This document shows positions 4,276-58,639 of a DNA stretch of 64,000 bases, piece after piece. The position numbers and the translations under genes were made by a program. The stretch lies in assembly GCF_034424315.1 (NCBI RefSeq), contig NZ_CP139972.1:5332001-5396000 (forward strand), written 5' to 3'. The stretch comes from Chitinophaga sancti (GTDB taxonomy: Bacteria > Bacteroidota > Bacteroidia > Chitinophagales > Chitinophagaceae). The notes below the pieces were generated by a model that was not told the DNA's origin, did no database searches, and worked only from the letters and a program-made list of their open reading frames with translations. Numbering within the stretch: the first letter of the stretch is position 1; each line of letters begins with the position of its first letter.

Positions 4276-7230
4276 TTATAAGGAGAAATTGATACCAGCG
4301 AGGATGCTCCTTGCTGTTGGATAAGGTGAGTATTCAATACCCATAGATGTAACCCCATTGATGTTTTTATCGGTGTTTACTTCAGGATCAAATCCGGTAT
4401 ATTTGGTAATGATAAAGAGGTTCTGACCTGTCAGGTAAATAGATGCTCCTTTTACCACCTTTCCGATATTTCCGATCTTATAACTGAGTGTGATGTTGTC
4501 CATCTTCATGAAATTACCTTTCTCCAGGTAACGGCTGGATACTGTAATCGGGTTGGACAAAGCCTCTTTAGACCCCACCAGTTTGGCCGCAATGTTCCTG
4601 GACCCCAGGTTGCCGATAGGCAATACTGTATTGGCAGTATTATTATAAATATCAAAGCCAAAGGCACCGTGCATATTCACACCCAGTGTCCAGCTTTTGT
4701 AATTAACAGAGGTAATGATCCCCATCATGGTCTTAGGATTGGGTTGCCCCAGAAAGTACATGCTGTTACCATTATCCTTGTATATGCCCTGACCATTGTC
4801 GTCAAAGCCCTCAAACTGCCGTACATAAAAAGAGTTCAAAGGCATGTTGTTCACGAGGCGCTGCGCGTAAGCATTAGATGCACCCTGCCCACTGATAGAA
4901 CCTGTGAGCACCGGAGGGCCATCGTAGTTTTTCAGTTCATTGCGCAGGAAAGTCGCGTTCACACCCAGATCCCAGGTGAAATCTTTGGTAGCCACCACAT
5001 CGCCACGCAGAACGATTTCAAACCCTTTATTGATCACATTTGCTGGCAGGTTTATCCAGTAATTGGATGCAGGTGCCGGCTGAATAGCAGGGAAATTGAA
5101 GAGCAGGTTCGTTGTATTCTTATTAAAATAATCCACGCTACCATACAATCTGCCATTAAAGAAAGCATAGTCAATACCTGCATTCAGCTGTTTGGAACTT
5201 TCCCATTTCAGATTAGGATTTGCCACGTTGCTCAGACTTGCCCCTCCGTTGGAATTGAGCGTATATTGTTCCTGTGCAGCGCCGGCAGGGAATTCCTGGT
5301 TACCGGTAATACCCCAGCCTACACGTAATGAAAGTTGAGAAACGGTCTTATTATCTTTCAGGAAAGCTTCGTTGGCGATGTTCCATTTTGCAGCGAAAGA
5401 TGGGAAGTAACCATATTTATTGTTTTCCCCGAACTTGCTGGAACCATCTGCTCTCAGGGTAGCTGTCAACAGGTATTTATCGAAAAAGTTCAGGTTAGCC
5501 CTGCCGAAAAAGGATTGCAGTTCTGACTTCGGATTTCTGAAAGAAGAAATAAATGTATTGGTTTGAATTGGGTTTTGTAGGATATCTACATACTTCAGCG
5601 CGTCCGTTGAGAAACCCAGGCCCCCCATGCTACGCCCTTTATAATTAAACTGCTGGCTTTCATAACCAACTACAGCACTGAGGAACATGGCTTTGGTCAC
5701 CTGCTTATTATAATTCAGTGTGTGGGTGAACAACTGAGAAGTAAGGGTATTCACCCCATAATAAGCCTGCCCGTTGTCCATCACATTTGGGATATTAATA
5801 AAAGAGGCGATCTGTGTTTCTCTTTCACCCACCTGGTGATTGATACTATAAACAAAACGATACTCCAGATCATCAGTGATTTTGATATAAGGAGAGATGT
5901 TCGCCAGGATACTATTGACATTTACATCATCATCATATGCCGCGGACATCGCTTCCGGATTAATAGCAGATCCCTTTCCTAATATATTGAAAGAACCATC
6001 TGCTTTACGGAGTGCAAGCGTAGGATTCCATTGCAAGGCCTGACCAATGAGGCTGCCTGTAAAACCAGCGTCGTTGGTAATAGGTGCAATCTGTTCTGTA
6101 GTATGTGCCGCCTGAACAGAGTAGTCAACCCCTATCCTTTGGTTGTCCAGGAGTTTGAACTGACCATTTAAGTTAGCTGTATACTTTCTCAAACCGGTTT
6201 TCTTTACAATACCCTGCTGATCGAGCATACCAAAGGAAGCACGGTATACACCATTGTCATTTCCACCGCTGAGGCCCACATTTACATTGTGTGTGATACC
6301 TGTACGCAGAATGCTGTTCATAGGATCTACGCTACTACCTTCATCGCCGGCAGTAAGGTTATATTGTTTCAGGGCTGATCTGTAACCCGCGGCATCCAGT
6401 ACATCCAGCTTTTTCAGGATACTGCTGGCACCGGCAGAATAGTTGAGATCCAGTTTGGGAGGTCCGGATTGGCCTTTTTTAGTAGTAATAATTACTACGC
6501 CATTGGCACCTCTGGCACCATAGATGGCGGTGGCAGATGCATCTTTCAATACATCCATAGACTGGATATCGAAGCTATTGATGAAATTCAGCGGATTGGC
6601 ATCGGGCGTCTGACCCAGGCCATTTGCATTCACAGAGGGTTTTGCTGTACGGCCATCCAATGGCATCCCATCTACTACATATAAAGGTTGGTTACCTGTT
6701 CTTACAGAAGAGTTACCACGAATTCTTACAGTAGTAGCACCACCAGGAGCACCACTGTTATTCATGACCATGAGCCCTGCTACCTTTCCCAGGATCAACT
6801 GATCAGGGGCGGTAACAATCCCCTTGTTAAAATCGGCCGACTTGATCGAGACAACGGAACCTGTCAGGTCTTTTTTTCGGGTGGTACCATAACCTACTAC
6901 GACCACATCAGTGAGGGTAGTGCTGGAAGGAACGAGTGAAATAGAAAACTGAGATTTCCCGGCGATAGCAACTTCCTGTTGATTATAGCCGATGAAAGAA
7001 ATAACGAGGGTCGTGCCATTGGGGGGAACACTCAATTTAAAAGTACCATCTGCAATGGCAGTAGTACCAGTGCTCGTACCTTTTACCTGAATGGTAGCAC
7101 CTGGAACCGGGCTGCCATTTTCGTCAGTTATTTTACCGGTGACGGGCCGGTTCTGGGCGCTGGCTATACCTGCTATTAGCAGCAACGACAAGCATATCAG
7201 CCGCACCTTACAAAACAGGAGAGTGGTCAT
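4276..7230 (-). CDS. SusC/RagA-family TonB-dependent outer-membrane transporter
   Basis: This 984-residue protein has a signal peptide (residues 1-25), a carboxypeptidase-regulatory-like beta-sandwich (about 27-102), the SusC signature around VVVGYGTTRKKDLTGSV (about 110-127), a plug domain and a C-terminal 22-strand barrel. There is no N-terminal STN domain, so it is not of the sigma/anti-sigma type. SusC transporters import oligosaccharides with energy from TonB-ExbBD. It is the first gene of the operon with susD and GH31. The upstream 383 bp carry inverted repeats that may be control sites, and a DUF6377 regulator gene lies just beyond. Confidence 0.95.
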   Translation of the reverse strand: MTTLLFCKVRLICLSLLLIAGIASAQNRPVTGKITDENGSPVPGATIQVKGTSTGTTAIADGTFKLSVPPNGTTLVISFIGYNQQEVAIAGKSQFSISLVPSSTTLTDVVVVGYGTTRKKDLTGSVVSIKSADFNKGIVTAPDQLILGKVAGLMVMNNSGAPGGATTVRIRGNSSVRTGNQPLYVVDGMPLDGRTAKPSVNANGLGQTPDANPLNFINSFDIQSMDVLKDASATAIYGARGANGVVIITTKKGQSGPPKLDLNYSAGASSILKKLDVLDAAGYRSALKQYNLTAGDEGSSVDPMNSILRTGITHNVNVGLSGGNDNGVYRASFGMLDQQGIVKKTGLRKYTANLNGQFKLLDNQRIGVDYSVQAAHTTEQIAPITNDAGFTGSLIGQALQWNPTLALRKADGSFNILGKGSAINPEAMSAAYDDDVNVNSILANISPYIKITDDLEYRFVYSINHQVGERETQIASFINIPNVMDNGQAYYGVNTLTSQLFTHTLNYNKQVTKAMFLSAVVGYESQQFNYKGRSMGGLGFSTDALKYVDILQNPIQTNTFISSFRNPKSELQSFFGRANLNFFDKYLLTATLRADGSSKFGENNKYGYFPSFAAKWNIANEAFLKDNKTVSQLSLRVGWGITGNQEFPAGAAQEQYTLNSNGGASLSNVANPNLKWESSKQLNAGIDYAFFNGRLYGSVDYFNKNTTNLLFNFPAIQPAPASNYWINLPANVINKGFEIVLRGDVVATKDFTWDLGVNATFLRNELKNYDGPPVLTGSISGQGASNAYAQRLVNNMPLNSFYVRQFEGFDDNGQGIYKDNGNSMYFLGQPNPKTMMGIITSVNYKSWTLGVNMHGAFGFDIYNNTANTVLPIGNLGSRNIAAKLVGSKEALSNPITVSSRYLEKGNFMKMDNITLSYKIGNIGKVVKGASIYLTGQNLFIITKYTGFDPEVNTDKNINGVTSMGIEYSPYPTARSILAGINFSL

Positions 7231-11248: not shown

Positions 11249-11398
11249 CTACTTTTCCTTCAATATCTGAACGGCGACCTGACCTGCCAGGGCGCCGTTC
11301 AGCCTGGTGGGCTCTCCCTTTCCAGGCAGCATTACCTCCCCGCTGCGGAATGCAGCATCCACAAACGACTTTTCCGCTATAGTTAAAGCATAATCCCA
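11249..11398 (-). pseudogene. Orphan 3' gene fragment in frame after the RlaP stop
   Basis: Directly after the TGA stop of the preceding nucleotidyltransferase gene, the same frame stays open for 49 codons (from WDYALTIAEK to QILKEK, then TAG at 11249-11251). The translation has ordinary protein composition and host-like codons (for example VMLPGKGEPTRLNGALAG). There is no ATG. Possible explanations are the tail of a deleted gene, a C-terminal extension cut off by a nonsense mutation, or a short gene with an unusual start. I do not recognise the family. The reading frame and stop codons were read directly; the pseudogene status is inference. Confidence 0.45.
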
Positions 11399-12454
11399 TC
11401 ATTGATAGAATGTTGTTCTGATTGTAACCAGTAATTCATTCGTTTTTACCTCATCCGGCATTTCTGGCAGATCAGATTTTGTATAAAGCTCCTCTATATG
11501 ATCCAGTTTCTCATCTACCATCGCTAAGAGATCATTGTATTCAAAACCACCACCTTTTATTTTCAGCAGGAAGTCTCTGTCCGGTCTTTCTACAATCACT
11601 TTCTTATGAACCGCAATCTCCTCCGCCATATTCAACAGGCGAAAAGTATGCATCATATTCTTTGCATCATAGTTTTTACCATGAGAGAGCGTATTCTGAA
11701 AACGGGCATCGTTCCTGTTGTCCACCCATTCCAGGTATTCCCTGTATTCGCGGCAGTAAACAGAGTAGCCATCTTTGTTGAACTGCATGACAGCAACGGG
11801 AGAGAGGCCGTTCGGAATACTACTTACCCGCACATCGTTGGCATCCTCACCTGATACAATTCCTTTCAGAGATCCACCCGCCTCGTGGTAAACAAGATAC
11901 ACATCTCTAAAATGCGGTACACTGGTCAAACCACAATCTTCCTGTAAGTACTGATACTTCTCTAACCATGTAGCCAATGGAATGCTCCCATTTTCGTCAA
12001 TAACATAACAGAATTCGGGTACAGCCTTTCTTACTTTCTCTGCAGGACGGTTGATCATTTTATTCAGTCCTTTCGCCTTTTTGATCTGCGACGCAGCATA
12101 ACCAGCGAATGTATCCTTGCATAATTTAGAAAGGAAATCTTCAGGCTTAATCATCTCCATAAGCGGATGGCGGTATAATACACAGCTTTCCGGAGTACCC
12201 AGTAGTTCCAGGATATTAGGATTATTCTTTTGCAATAATTCCAGGAACCTGCCTATTTCAAAATAAACTTCATCGTTGGTTGCATTATAGACCTGTGGAG
12301 TATAGGTAAAACCATACAGCTCCCGTTGAGGTAAAACATAAATCCCTTTCAGATCTGTGTCTGAAGTGGCGGTATGCAGTTGCTGGGAGCGACTGCCGCT
12401 AATGGCCTTTAACAACAGGTGTTGTGGCTCATTCATTAATTGCTCAAAAGTCAT
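11399..12454 (-). CDS. RlaP-type nucleotidyltransferase (RNA-repair-associated), second copy
   Basis: A 351-residue protein counted from the ATG at 12454. An open stretch extends a few codons upstream, but MTFEQLM is the natural start, overlapping the upstream gene by 11 bp. The N-terminus has a polymerase-beta-fold signature: GSRSQQLHTATSDTDLKGIY, with the G-S motif and the metal-binding D-x-D in SDTDLKG. It fits the PF10127/COG3541 group, called RlaP because many members sit beside RNA ligases in RNA-repair operons. Its own reaction is unknown; nucleotide addition to RNA ends is a reasonable inference. It is translationally coupled to a second, shorter homologue. Confidence 0.85.
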   Translation of the reverse strand: MTFEQLMNEPQHLLLKAISGSRSQQLHTATSDTDLKGIYVLPQRELYGFTYTPQVYNATNDEVYFEIGRFLELLQKNNPNILELLGTPESCVLYRHPLMEMIKPEDFLSKLCKDTFAGYAASQIKKAKGLNKMINRPAEKVRKAVPEFCYVIDENGSIPLATWLEKYQYLQEDCGLTSVPHFRDVYLVYHEAGGSLKGIVSGEDANDVRVSSIPNGLSPVAVMQFNKDGYSVYCREYREYLEWVDNRNDARFQNTLSHGKNYDAKNMMHTFRLLNMAEEIAVHKKVIVERPDRDFLLKIKGGGFEYNDLLAMVDEKLDHIEELYTKSDLPEMPDEVKTNELLVTIRTTFYQ

Positions 12455-13208
12455 AGTTACGGATATATTTTCTGAACAGCACATCCAGTTCAACGGTATT
12501 ATTCTTCAATGGCAACAGGGAGGCCGCTTTTTCATTACAATACTGAATTGTATCAGCTATCCATTGTTGTAGGGGCATGACGGGAGAGATCAATGTCTTC
12601 TCATCTGCTGCCTGTTTTTGTATGAGCAATGCATCAATAGTTGCCTGCCATGCAGCATCGCTGATCAGCGTTCTTAGTATATGAAATTCCATGGGAGGAA
12701 CTGCTCCTTTTTCTACAATCCACTTTGCAGCGAGTAAGGGTCGCAATGCATAGAAGTACTTTTTGATCCTGACCGTTTCACCCTGTAAGTCATTCTCAAA
12801 AGTGTTTTTAGCCATTGAAATATAGTGATGACAACCTGCCCGCTGAGAGAAATATTTCTCTGACAAGTTGAGTAATTCAGCCTTGAGATCCTCGTTGGGA
12901 ATATAGTGTATAGGTGATTGCACCCATTCATACAATGGCGCATTTGACTTCAAAAAAAGCTGCAATGCCTTACGTAAATCCCAACCACCAATGTCGAGAA
13001 TTTCATTTACAGGCAACTCAATTACATCTTTTCTTTCTGCTATACCCAGGTAGTCATTTAATGGACGGATGTAAATGAACCGAACATCAAAGTCGCTGTC
13101 AGGCGAAGCAAATCCCCATGCTCTACTACCTGACTCACAGGCATATATGATTTTTACGCCCTGACTTTTTTCAATCATTGACAATTTCTCTGCGATGATA
13201 GTTCTCAT
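12444..13208 (-). CDS. RlaP-type nucleotidyltransferase, first copy
   Basis: A 254-residue protein with the nucleotidyltransferase motif near the N-terminus: ESGSRAWGFASPDSDFDVRF (about residues 25-44), giving the G-S motif and catalytic D-x-D pair. It is a shorter relative of the next gene and overlaps it by 11 bp, so the two enzymes are probably made together and may act as a pair. Polymerase-beta-fold RlaP proteins are linked to RNA repair by genome context. No RtcB ligase gene is visible in the window. It is transcribed divergently from the small ORFs, tRNA and YkuK gene. Confidence 0.87.
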   Translation of the reverse strand: MRTIIAEKLSMIEKSQGVKIIYACESGSRAWGFASPDSDFDVRFIYIRPLNDYLGIAERKDVIELPVNEILDIGGWDLRKALQLFLKSNAPLYEWVQSPIHYIPNEDLKAELLNLSEKYFSQRAGCHHYISMAKNTFENDLQGETVRIKKYFYALRPLLAAKWIVEKGAVPPMEFHILRTLISDAAWQATIDALLIQKQAADEKTLISPVMPLQQWIADTIQYCNEKAASLLPLKNNTVELDVLFRKYIRNYDF

Positions 13209-13300
13209 TTTATTTCTTGTATTTTCAGGTCAACAACATTTTAATTTTCTGTTAATTAGCTACAGGAAAGCAATTCAAGCTAAAAAAATATTTCAAAATA

Positions 13301-13333
13301 TTTGTGTAGAATGAAAAAATTATTTCATCTTTG
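13301..13333 (+). promoter_or_regulatory. Candidate promoter of the small-ORF/RNA unit
   Basis: A TTTG box (13301-13304) is followed after 21 bp by CATCTTTG (13326-13333), one mismatch from the Bacteroidota -7 consensus TAnnTTTG. Transcription would begin near 13340, upstream of the 27-codon ORF and its terminator. Confidence 0.5.
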
Positions 13334-13363
13334 CACTGACAAAATTATTTAAACAATTCACAT

Positions 13364-13447
13364 ATGCAGCACCTCGTACTAAAAAATATAGACACAGTCG
13401 GTCCAGTGATCGGCGCCGTGCGCGGGGAGTGTTATGTAACGAAGTAG
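13364..13447 (+). CDS. Possible 27-residue peptide or small RNA
   Basis: A 27-codon ORF (MQHLVLKNID to GECYVTK) sits between a good promoter candidate and a strong terminator, so a discrete transcript of about 160 nt is likely. The same stretch has a 6-bp long-range pairing (GTACTA at 13376-13381 with TAGTAC at 13445-13450), so a non-coding RNA is an equal possibility. No family was recognised. It is divergent from the RlaP genes and upstream of the tRNA and YkuK gene. Confidence 0.3.
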   Translation: MQHLVLKNIDTVGPVIGAVRGECYVTK

Positions 13448-13474
13448 TACAATAAACTAATTCAATATAACAAG

Positions 13475-13503
13475 AGCCCTGCGAGAAATTGCAGGGCTTT
13501 TTT
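13475..13503 (+). terminator. Intrinsic terminator
   Basis: An 8-bp stem AGCCCTGC/GCAGGGCT (13475-13482 and 13491-13498) is followed by a run of T residues. It ends the short transcript that starts near 13340. Confidence 0.85.
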
Positions 13504-13532
13504 CATTTATAAACCGACAAAAACTAATACGC

Positions 13533-13739
13533 ATGCAAATGCAGTTGATATCTATACAATTCACTATGCTGGCGGGTCTACACAGATCAGGCGAAGGGGT
13601 GACGTGTGCATACATATCAACAGATTGGAAACGTGCAGGTATTGGATTTGATGCGCTATTTGGTGATGATAGTAAAGGCAATAATGATAGCGAGCGCGAG
13701 CCGGAAATATATCAACGACCTAGTTATATCTGGACATAA
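13533..13739 (+). CDS. Small hypothetical protein
   Basis: A 68-codon ORF with a protein-like composition and an acidic C-terminal half (GDDSKGNNDSEREPE). No domain or signal peptide is evident and I do not recognise it. It lies between two terminators (ending at 13503 and 13797), so it would be its own transcript. An 8-bp inverted pair, GTTGATAT with ATATCAAC, spans its first half, so a structured RNA is an alternative. It belongs by position to the RlaP/tRNA/YkuK cluster. Confidence 0.35.
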   Translation: MQMQLISIQFTMLAGLHRSGEGVTCAYISTDWKRAGIGFDALFGDDSKGNNDSEREPEIYQRPSYIWT

Positions 13740-13765
13740 TTAAACATTATGTATTCAGTAAAAAG

Positions 13766-13797
13766 AACCCGGTCGTTATCAAACGGCCGGGTTTTTT
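13766..13797 (+). terminator. Intrinsic terminator before the tRNA
   Basis: The stem AACCCGG/CCGGGTT (13766-13772 and 13787-13793) with an inner CGTT/AACG pairing is followed by six T residues. It separates the 68-codon ORF from the tRNA that begins 13 bp later. Confidence 0.85.
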
Positions 13798-13809
13798 ATT
13801 GCCCCTTAT

Positions 13810-13882
13810 TGGCCTGTGGCGCAATGGTTAGCGCAGTTGCCTTATACGCAAACGGTTACCAGTTCAAGTCTGGTCAGGTCAA
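13810..13882 (+). tRNA. tRNA-Ile (anticodon UAU), atypical
   Basis: A full cloverleaf can be drawn by eye. The acceptor is TGGCCTG/CAGGTCA (7 bp with one G-U). The D stem is GCGC/GCGC with a loop containing GG. The anticodon stem is GTTGC/GCAAA with one G-A mismatch at its base, and its loop is CTTATAC. The T stem is ACCAG/CTGGT with loop TTCAAGT. The discriminator is A, and CCA is not encoded. The anticodon TAT would read AUA. Most bacteria read AUA with a lysidine-modified CAU tRNA, so a UAU tRNA is unusual. It is followed 50 bp later by the YkuK gene and may share its transcript. It could be a functional tRNA, a decoy or an RNA substrate of the neighbouring enzymes. Confidence 0.8.
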
Positions 13883-13932
13883 CAAACAAAAACATTAAAA
13901 AGAAAAACGCAAACAACAAACATGACGTAGCC

Positions 13933-14418
13933 ATGGAAACTGTAAGAAGCTGGAGAAGGCTCAATGGAATGGAAATCATCAGCCCCATCGAAGAAGAAAT
14001 TGAAAACGTACTGTCTGCCGAAAGTGGCGATGGCAATGCACTGAAAGTGTGCATCGGCACGGATAGTCAGAAGAAAGGAAAGATCGTGGAATTCGCCACC
14101 GTGATCGTTTTCCTGCGGAAAGGGAAAGGAGGATTCATGTATATATTAACTGATGCCTCCACCCACAAGATGAGTATAAAGGAAAGGATGCTCGCAGAAG
14201 TAGGCAAGAGTATAGAAGTTGCTTATTCACTGTGTCACCTCTTTACTAAATACGGTGTAGATATGGAGATACACGCTGACATCAATACGAATCCAGCTTT
14301 TAAAAGTAACGATGCGCTGAAAGAGGCAATGGGTTATATCACAGGAATGGGATTCTCTTTCCGGGCTAAACCACATGCTTTTGCAAGTACAAGTTGTGCG
14401 AATAAAATTGTTCATTAA
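13933..14418 (+). CDS. YkuK-family RNase H-like protein (DUF458)
   Basis: A 161-residue protein from the ATG at 13933. The open frame extends upstream through the tRNA, so the farther start is rejected. It matches the YkuK/DUF458 RNase H-like family: an early CIGTDSQ strand with an acidic residue, a middle DASTHKMSIKERMLAE segment, and a late HADINTNP to GYITGMGF to SCANKIVH region. The family is believed to have an RNase H fold, but its substrate is unknown. It lies just after a tRNA, before a large structured RNA and near two RlaP enzymes, which suggests a role in RNA processing or repair. That role is inference. Confidence 0.88.
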   Translation: METVRSWRRLNGMEIISPIEEEIENVLSAESGDGNALKVCIGTDSQKKGKIVEFATVIVFLRKGKGGFMYILTDASTHKMSIKERMLAEVGKSIEVAYSLCHLFTKYGVDMEIHADINTNPAFKSNDALKEAMGYITGMGFSFRAKPHAFASTSCANKIVH

Positions 14419-14460
14419 TCAATCTCAATACAATGATCTACCTAACTAACTTTATTTATG

Positions 14461-14847
14461 TAGACCTTAGTTCCGAAAGGGATGAAACAGTTGATAAACT
14501 TACTGCCAGGACCGGATCTGACCCCAGATCAACTGATGGATCCAAGCTGGCGCCAACAAGCACGCACTGGGGTGCAAGCCTTGTTGATAACGGTGGAGTA
14601 CCAATGCCCGATGGGTATAGGACTCTACCTATCCCCAGGTGGTCTGGATAGCAGTTTATCAGGCAAGTAATTTCACTTCACCTTTAAAATAAGTGCTACT
14701 TATATGGTGCATGGTCTGAATTCCGGTTCCAATATTCCGTAAGATATTGGGCAGGAATTCAGGGCCTTTGCCAAAGCGAAATGATTGCCACCGATAATAA
14801 TTTTGCTGCTGCTGCCAATGTAAACCATTGGAGTGGTAATTTTTTTT
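14461..14847 (+). ncRNA. Candidate large structured non-coding RNA
   Basis: No convincing gene lies here, but many complementary segments do. There is a GAAA-capped hairpin (14471-14482). A 10-bp closing stem pairs 14491-14500 with 14653-14662 and is extended by CCAG/CTGG. Inside it are GATCTG/CAGATC (14515-14530), CAACAAG/CTTGTTG with inner GCAC/GTGC (14554-14586), and GGTGGAGT/ACTCTACC with inner ATGCCC/GGGTAT (14592-14629). Then come ATAAGT/ACTTAT (14689-14703), CTGAATTCC/GGAATTCAG with inner CCAATAT/ATATTGG (14716-14762), and a final ATTGCCAC/GTGGTAAT stem followed by eight T residues (14784-14847). It does not show the conserved motifs of RNase P RNA, tmRNA or SRP RNA. It may be co-transcribed with the YkuK gene. 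Confidence 0.6.
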
Positions 14848-58412: not shown

Positions 58413-58453
58413 ATGCTCAAAGATATGGACTTTTTCCCCTACCTTTATGCTTC

Positions 58454-58544
58454 ACTTTAGGGGTGTTTTCCAGGCCACCATACCCGGAAAGCTGAGATGA
58501 GACCCTCAGGACCTGACGCAGTTCATACTGCCGTAGGGAAAAGT
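58454..58544 (+). ncRNA. TPP riboswitch (THI element)
   Basis: The conserved TPP-aptamer pieces appear in order: AGGGGTG (58459-58465), GCTGAGATGAGACCCT, then ACCTGACGCAGTT and CCGTAGGGAA. The outer P1 pairing is ACTTT/AAAGT (58454-58458 with 58540-58544). It lies directly upstream of the thi genes. Downstream, CCTGG/CCAGG and GGTTCAG/CTGAATCC overlap as alternative pairings, a plausible expression platform. Confidence 0.95.
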
Positions 58545-58639
58545 ACCTGGTTCAGCCAAGCCCGCTGCCAGGAATGAACTGAATCCTCACATCTTCTACC
58601 ATCCTTAAAGTTTATTGTTTCACCTTAATTCATGCACTC

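What the first reader, a model, noticed from the sequence alone, without database searches (positions are those of the whole stretch)
11249..14847. Candidate RNA-repair or RNA-processing island: two RlaP enzymes, an odd tRNA, YkuK and a large structured RNA
Two overlapping RlaP-type nucleotidyltransferases (minus strand) face a divergent unit with two tiny ORFs, a tRNA with anticodon UAU, a YkuK-type RNase H-like protein and about 390 nt of highly foldable sequence. Established knowledge: RlaP proteins are linked by gene context to RNA ligases in RNA repair, and YkuK has an RNase H-like fold of unknown role. Inference: the enzymes may process or repair the tRNA and/or the structured RNA, possibly as defence against tRNA-cutting toxins. 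No RtcB ligase is visible here, so the set would be a reduced or new variant.
Basis: partly seen in the sequence, partly recalled or inferred. Interest (0 to 1): 0.8.

Follow-up and report, generated by a model that had tools for sequence, protein, structure and literature searches.

The report
Translation-failure switch for spare tRNAs
In one family of bacteria, spare tRNA genes and RNA-repair genes appear to be kept off by two tiny test peptides in a row and switched on only when the ribosome cannot read those peptides, for example because a toxin has destroyed tRNAs.

Summary
The key feature was missed. The two tiny ORFs are leader peptides of two tandem transcription attenuators: the end of each ORF can pair with the 5' arm of the terminator behind it, so antiterminator and terminator exclude each other. 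Antiterminator 1 keeps 87.9% of its pairs in 93 loci (36-46% when slid), with compensatory changes; antiterminator 2 behaves alike in 70 loci. A model of leader 1 hits 157 of 394 Chitinophagaceae genomes. Of 90 fetched loci (three aromatic-amino-acid operons set aside), 87 have tRNAs (up to 18) and/or RNA-repair genes downstream: RtcB, Band-7, AAA, YkuK, TROVE, RlaP. Leader 1 holds 264 of 287 amino-acid types of its own array; leaders of other genera 84%, random protein windows 61%. The window's leaders are rich in ATA, which its one spare tRNA reads. Best reading: a ribosome-based sensor of tRNA loss or translation failure that releases replacement tRNAs and repair enzymes. No expression data were available. 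New variant of known kinds.

The parts
11399..12493 (-). RlaP-type nucleotidyltransferase 2 (364 aa as listed from TTG)
   Evidence: PF10127 E 3e-17
12444..13208 (-). RlaP-type nucleotidyltransferase 1 (254 aa), divergent from the leader unit
   Evidence: PF10127 E 4e-84
13275..13345 (+). promoter-like block conserved in relatives, with TTTGCACTG from 13330; start of transcription not mapped
   Evidence: similar blocks upstream of leader 1 in fetched relatives
13364..13447 (+). leader ORF 1 (27 codons)
13422..13428 (+). antiterminator arm 1 (outer) inside leader 1; inner arm TGTTAT at 13430-13435 pairs with ATAACA at 13467-13472
13476..13503 (+). terminator 1; its 5' arm 13476-13482 is also the partner of arm 1
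13533..13739 (+). leader ORF 2 (68 codons; 4 of its 6 Ile codons are ATA)
13714..13720 (+). antiterminator arm 2 (AACGACC) inside leader 2
13768..13797 (+). terminator 2; its 5' arm pairs with arm 2 or with its own 3' arm
13810..13883 (+). spare tRNA-Ile, anticodon UAU
13933..14418 (+). YkuK-type RNase H-like protein (161 aa)
   Evidence: PF04308 E 8e-34; the same family follows the leader unit in 37 of 90 loci
14461..14847 (+). foldable region of unknown meaning, probably not part of the unit
   Evidence: z -4.4; conserved only in G014 and a 37-nt piece in G010

Best explanation
An attenuator-controlled tRNA-replacement and RNA-repair unit. RNA polymerase passes two leader ORFs in series. If ribosomes translate leader 1 to its stop codon they cover the antiterminator arm, terminator 1 forms and transcription stops. 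If the ribosome stalls upstream of the arm because a cognate tRNA is cut, missing or uncharged, or if the leader is not translated at all, the arm pairs with the 5' arm of the terminator and polymerase reads on. Leader 2 repeats the test. Only failure of both gives full read-through into the spare tRNA and YkuK here (RlaP genes stand divergent), and in relatives into arrays of up to 18 tRNAs with RtcB, Band-7, AAA, TROVE or RlaP. The leader samples many different codons, so it would answer to loss of any of several tRNAs. Shown from sequence: leader ORFs, mutually exclusive hairpins with covariation, array and gene content, match of leader codons to array tRNAs. Inferred: transcription, the inducing signal, function of the spare tRNAs, and the role against tRNA-cutting toxins or translation inhibitors.
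For: Antiterminator 1: 87.9% of cells paired in 93 loci against 36-46% when slid, 53 cells changed on both sides, 0 of 500 shuffles reach the score. Antiterminator 2: 84.1% against 13-48%, 0 of 500. 92 of 93 loci have an ATG ORF over arm 1; of 89 leaders 59 start exactly 67 nt before the arm and 66 stop 16 nt after it. Folding: with a ribosome held at about codon 9 the antiterminator forms in 83 of 89, with a ribosome at the stop the terminator forms in 89 of 89. 87 of 90 loci have tRNAs or repair genes downstream. Chosen by the AAA protein instead, 67 of 80 loci carry the attenuator upstream of it. Own array amino-acid types in leader 1: 264 of 287, against 83.8% with leaders of other genera and 61.3% (mean per locus; 93.8% for the own leader) with random protein windows. 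ATA is 36 of 61 Ile codons in leaders before a UAU tRNA, 43 of 118 in the others, 262 of 1102 in operon genes of the former. Three loci caught by the same model are aromatic operons with Phe/Tyr-run leaders: the classical form of the same device.
Against: No expression data. Leader 1 shows no significant third-position excess of changes (111, 132, 145 at positions 1, 2, 3; p 0.10; 60 synonymous against 215 other changed codons), so coding rests on the kept frame, start and stop, not on a conserved peptide. Amino-acid enrichment of leaders against array frequency is weak (Spearman 0.32, p 0.17; against the other two frames 0.48, p 0.03). The leader-array association weakens with one locus per genus (median p 0.01, largest 0.055). 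26 of 90 loci have no tRNA found by ARAGORN; in 10 of these Rfam found one weak tRNA in all. In the window only one tRNA and YkuK follow. Outer arm 1 of the window is imperfect (GCGGGGA with GCCCTGC, one G-U and one mismatch).
Confidence: 0.72

Rival explanations
1. The attenuators are real, but the signal is general: antibiotics that stop ribosomes, or amino-acid starvation, rather than toxin-cut tRNAs. The spare tRNAs then only raise translation capacity.
For: The device reacts to any failure to translate the leader (inference). Anabaena's 26-tRNA operon is induced by antibiotics that target translation (PMC10272220, abstract and passages). 26 of 90 loci control repair or other genes with no tRNA found.
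Against: Leader composition follows array content and the linked genes are RNA-repair genes; neither excludes this rival.
Confidence: 0.18
2. One reading: RlaP and YkuK process or repair the local tRNA and the large structured RNA.
For: RlaP and YkuK are neighbours of the tRNA in several genomes of the genus.
Against: The structured RNA is not conserved. The number of tRNAs varies from 0 to 18 while the enzymes stay, as for spare products rather than dedicated substrates.
Confidence: 0.07
3. The hairpins are ordinary terminators between unrelated short genes and the pairing is chance or shared descent.
For: Loci are related, and parts of the leader are conserved as sequence.
Against: Compensatory changes in both attenuators, a separate arm sequence in a second attenuator of the same genome, fixed distances to start and stop, aromatic-operon controls.
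Confidence: 0.03

Closest known systems
trn operon of Anabaena PCC 7120 and the TrcR regulon (PMC10272220: abstract and passages seen)
   Same: Extra tRNA array (26 genes), silent normally, induced by translational stress; genes raised in the trcR mutant include rtcB, a slipin gene and an AAA ATPase gene.
   Different: Control by the repressor TrcR, array on a megaplasmid apart from the repair genes. The words attenuat and leader do not occur in that text. Homology of its AAA gene to the one here was not tested.
rsr-yrlBA-rtcBA RNA-repair operon with RtcR, Salmonella (PMC7790460: abstract and section list seen)
   Same: RNA-repair operon with RtcB and, from the operon name, an Rsr (Ro-type) gene, switched on when tRNAs are damaged.
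   Different: The sensor is the protein RtcR, which binds tRNA fragments; no leader peptides or tRNA array in what I saw.
RtcB/RlaP/Band-7/TROVE RNA-repair neighbourhoods of Burroughs and Aravind 2016 (gkw722, not held; content recalled; cited in passages of PMC6514570)
   Same: Same protein parts; I recall mention of a tRNA-like RNA beside Band-7 modules.
   Different: Multi-tRNA arrays under tandem attenuators are not part of what I recall; I could not read the paper to check.
Ribosome-mediated transcription attenuators of the trp, his and phe type (recalled)
   Same: Leader ORF, antiterminator that includes the leader's end, intrinsic terminator.
   Different: Two in series; leaders sample many codons instead of a run of one; products include tRNA genes and repair enzymes.

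Membership tests
Ribosome-mediated transcription attenuator | short translated-type leader ORF ending over the switch | tested here: met
   92 of 93 loci; start and stop at fixed distance in 59 and 66 of 89; codon-position test not significant
Ribosome-mediated transcription attenuator | intrinsic terminator after the leader | tested here: met
Ribosome-mediated transcription attenuator | mutually exclusive antiterminator with covariation | tested here: met
Ribosome-mediated transcription attenuator | control codons that match the product | tested here: met
   weaker with one locus per genus; simple enrichment test weak
Ribosome-mediated transcription attenuator | read-through changes with translation of the leader | not testable with these tools
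   needs reporter or in vitro transcription
RtcB-type RNA-repair operon | RNA ligase in the unit | tested here: not met
   none in the window's unit; RtcB at three other places in the genome; in 40 of 90 related loci RtcB is downstream
RtcB-type RNA-repair operon | RlaP nucleotidyltransferase beside it | tested here: met
   two RlaP genes in the window
Stress-induced tRNA array | extra tRNA genes distinct from housekeeping ones | tested here: met
   related genome G124: 8 of 10 array tRNAs had a fetched housekeeping tRNA with the same anticodon, 53-66% identical; the others had none in the 30 loci fetched. Not tested for the window's own tRNA
Stress-induced tRNA array | induction by translational stress | not testable with these tools
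   no expression data
Catalogued anti-phage defence protein (PADLOC) | match to a model | tested here: not met
   no match for RlaP x2, YkuK and Band-7; AAA one short weak match, E 7e-4

The most novel reading that the evidence does not exclude
A polyvalent tRNA census: each leader carries codons for most of the tRNAs that toxins attack, so that loss of any one of them releases the operon. Two leaders in series act as an AND gate against false alarms. The operon then supplies sequence-divergent replacement tRNAs that escape the toxin, together with ligase-based repair: a built-in bacterial counterpart of phage decoy tRNAs.
Probability: 0.45. Interest if true: 0.92.

Novelty: new variant of a known kind. 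Interest (0 to 1): 0.85.

Why it matters
RNA-repair operons built on RtcB and RlaP are widespread (recalled), but what switches them on is known in few cases. Here a sensor that can be read from sequence links tRNA loss to spare tRNAs and repair enzymes across a bacterial family. It predicts which tRNAs are attacked in nature (those sampled by leaders and supplied by arrays), gives YkuK, the AAA protein and an unnamed 250-aa family a setting, and is testable with one reporter. It also extends attenuation from control by a single amino acid to broad surveillance of translation.

Tried and rejected
Large structured RNA as a partner: foldable but conserved only in the sister genome and one short piece among 20 neighbourhoods. 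Rfam families for the leaders: none at gathering score; the three non-tRNA matches below it (E 0.5-0.8) look like chance. Codon-position test of leader 1: not significant. Simple enrichment of leader amino acids against array frequency: Spearman 0.32, p 0.17; against the other two frames 0.48, p 0.03. Spread beyond the family: 8 of 395 genomes of a phylum sample at E 0.001 or better, 4 of them in the own family and 4 marginal ones outside; by eye one of these four stands before an aromatic operon, the other three show no such leader. Own genome: besides the window, three weak matches at E 0.0042, 0.0047 and 0.016; only the first stands before repair genes, so the score alone does not separate them. 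PADLOC: nothing useful.

Rows left out of counts: L154, L158 and L160 (aromatic operons) from the 93 loci, giving 90; L148 (no ORF) from leader statistics, giving 89. The 3 misses of 87 of 90 are L129 and L150 (contig ends just behind the attenuator) and L136. The 80 loci were picked by hand from the match list, all at E 6e-6 or better, so frequencies describe confident matches. Terminator 2 was sought by a pattern: 70 of 90 loci; 60 of these gave an arm and all 60 an ATG ORF over it, two of them shorter than 20 codons. Genus labels and the rows counted were typed from the outputs. The folding control is looser than the test (any partner). One search listed 53 tRNA matches, of which 30 loci were fetched.

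Papers: PMC10272220 outline, abstract and passages; PMC6514570 passages; PMC7790460 abstract and section list; all others only as listings. Searches for a report of this system; none of the listed titles and abstract openings describes it. The library holds open-licence papers only.
Full report
What is there. The window lies in an 8.42-Mb genome. Its AAA-type repair gene, found elsewhere in the genome, is 97% identical to that of Chitinophaga silvisoli, so the genus is very probably Chitinophaga. At 11399-14418 there are two overlapping RlaP genes on the minus strand (PF10127) and, divergent from them, a promoter-like block, a 27-codon ORF, a terminator, a 68-codon ORF, a second terminator, tRNA-Ile(UAU) and a YkuK-type gene.

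Comparison in the genus. A DNA search of 40 relatives and the fetched neighbourhoods show the leader unit in 12 of the 24 other same-genus genomes searched. In these the order is leader 1, terminator 1, leader 2, terminator 2, then tRNAs: Ile(UAU) alone or with others among Gln, His, Tyr, Phe, Lys, Asn, Asp, Ile(GAU) and Arg; in G002 no Ile gene was recognised. The tiny ORFs differ in sequence, but each ends in a stretch complementary to the 5' arm of the terminator behind it.

Attenuator 1. The end of leader 1 (GCGGGGC type, then TGTTAT) pairs with ATAACA and GCCCCGC, and the latter is also the 5' arm of the terminator. In the 13-locus MAFFT alignment 95.3% of cells pair, against 33-49% when slid, and 3 of 500 shuffles reach the covariation score. 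In 93 loci aligned with model R1 it is 87.9% against 36-46%, with 53 cells changed on both sides and 0 of 500 shuffles; that alignment leans towards the structure. GCAGGGC with GCCCTGC replaces GCGGGGC with GCCCCGC in six loci. 92 of 93 loci have an ATG-started ORF over the arm. Of 89 leaders 59 start exactly 67 nt before the arm and 66 stop 16 nt after it, a geometry in which a finishing ribosome would cover the antiterminator. Folding agrees: with a ribosome at about codon 9 the antiterminator forms in 83 of 89 loci, with a ribosome at the stop the terminator forms in 89 of 89. In a looser control with the upstream part shuffled, the 5' arm finds a partner of any kind in 28 of 89.

Attenuator 2. 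A second terminator of the CCGGTCG type was found by pattern in 70 of 90 loci. Its 5' arm pairs with CGACCGG-type stretches about 50 nt upstream: 84.1% of cells against 13-48% when slid, 0 of 500 shuffles for the covariation score. All 60 loci with a recognised arm have an ATG ORF over it, two of them under 20 codons. Members with quite different letters keep the pairing, for example CAACCGGG with CCCGGTTG in L036 and ATACCGTGG in L146.

Distribution and gene content. R1 matches 157 of 394 family genomes at E 0.01 or better, in 60 of 101 genera. In a sample of 395 genomes of the phylum 8 match at E 0.001, four of them in the own family. I fetched 80 of the family loci; with the window and 12 genus loci that makes 93. 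Three are aromatic operons. Behind the attenuator of the other 90: AAA ATPase 45, RtcB 40, Band-7 38, YkuK 37, an unnamed 250-aa family 10, DinB_2 6, TROVE 5, RlaP 5; tRNAs in 64; either in 87. Arrays reach 18 tRNAs (L099). In L131 a TROVE gene and a DinB gene sit between the attenuators and ten tRNAs. When loci are chosen by the AAA protein instead, 67 of 80 carry an R1 match upstream of it on the same strand at E 0.01 or better; some genomes are in both sets.

A second unit in the same genome. Of three further weak R1 matches in the window's genome (E 0.0042, 0.0047, 0.016) one lies directly before a DinB and an AAA gene. It has its own leader (MKRSPKHIASEMSCKQKQARCGLRECCTN), a different arm (TTGCGGGA with TCCCGCA) and a second attenuator. 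The other two look like chance. The genome's three RtcB genes lie elsewhere and have no R1 match.

What the leaders read. The aromatic operons caught by R1 have FYFYFYF-type leaders before prephenate dehydratase; in L154, where they were also named by Pfam, an aminotransferase and a prephenate dehydrogenase follow. So this architecture, in this family, reads codons that fit the product. The repair leaders have no such runs: 65 dissimilar leaders hold on average 14.8 different amino acids in 21 codons, against 12.1 in random protein windows. In 43 loci with at least three array amino-acid types, leader 1 holds on average 93.8% of those types, against 61.3 +/- 2.9% for random windows; permuting arrays among loci reached the association in 0 of 2000 trials. 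Pooled, the own leader covers 264 of 287, a leader of another genus 83.8 +/- 2.0%; with one locus per genus the association has median p 0.01, largest 0.055. ATA is 36 of 61 Ile codons in leaders before a UAU tRNA, 43 of 118 in the others, and 262 of 1102 in operon genes of the former loci. In the window 5 of 8 Ile codons of the two leaders are ATA, against 230 of 1204 in ORFs of 200 aa or more, a mechanical list; its only spare tRNA reads AUA.

The spare tRNAs. In one related complete genome (G124) eight of ten array tRNAs could be compared with a fetched housekeeping tRNA of the same anticodon: 53-66% identity, several with another anticodon loop. Resistance to toxins is a guess from this divergence.

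Mechanism. The ribosome on the leader is the sensor. Normal translation gives termination at two successive places; stalling, or no translation, gives read-through. The products are replacement tRNAs and repair proteins. The link to anticodon nucleases is inference; antibiotics or starvation could give the same signal.

Known relatives. Anabaena's trn operon shows that extra tRNAs can be induced by translational stress, together with rtcB, a slipin gene and an AAA gene that are raised in the trcR mutant (PMC10272220). Salmonella's rtcBA operon shows an RNA-repair operon that senses broken tRNAs through a protein (PMC7790460 abstract). In what I saw neither uses leader-peptide attenuation. The main survey of RNA-repair systems could not be read, so its overlap with the gene content described here is recalled only.

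Limits and results against. Everything is sequence inference. The codon-position test of leader 1 was not significant and the plain enrichment test was weak. 26 of 90 loci have no tRNA found by ARAGORN. E-values of the RNA model are rough, loci were taken from confident matches, and related genomes are not independent. On rechecking I lowered the probability of the novel case from 0.50 to 0.45 because the one-locus-per-genus test is borderline in some draws.

Noticed in passing
L154, L158, L160 (attenuator at about 6000-6100): Attenuators of the same build with Phe/Tyr-run leaders before prephenate dehydratase genes: classical amino-acid attenuation in this family.
   Followed up: partly
L290, L292, L293, L296 (second match near 6520-6655): Chitinophaga loci with a further attenuator-like match between the DinB and AAA genes, with other arm letters in the three examined (L292, L293, L296).
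   Followed up: partly
L149:8694-9452 and nine further loci (cluster 12): An unnamed family of about 250 aa, no Pfam match at E 0.01 (one member tested), in the repair gene rows of 10 of 90 loci.
   Followed up: no
window 14482-14670: A 62-codon ORF inside the foldable region, 88.5% identical at protein level in G014; its GGLDSS stretch recalls asparagine synthase-like proteins (by eye; no Pfam match).
   Followed up: no
window 58449-58556: TPP riboswitch (Rfam RF00059).
   Followed up: no
L291: A contig labelled Beijerinckiaceae carries the Chitinophagaceae-type AAA gene with a weak attenuator match (E 0.059); perhaps a mis-binned metagenome contig.
   Followed up: no
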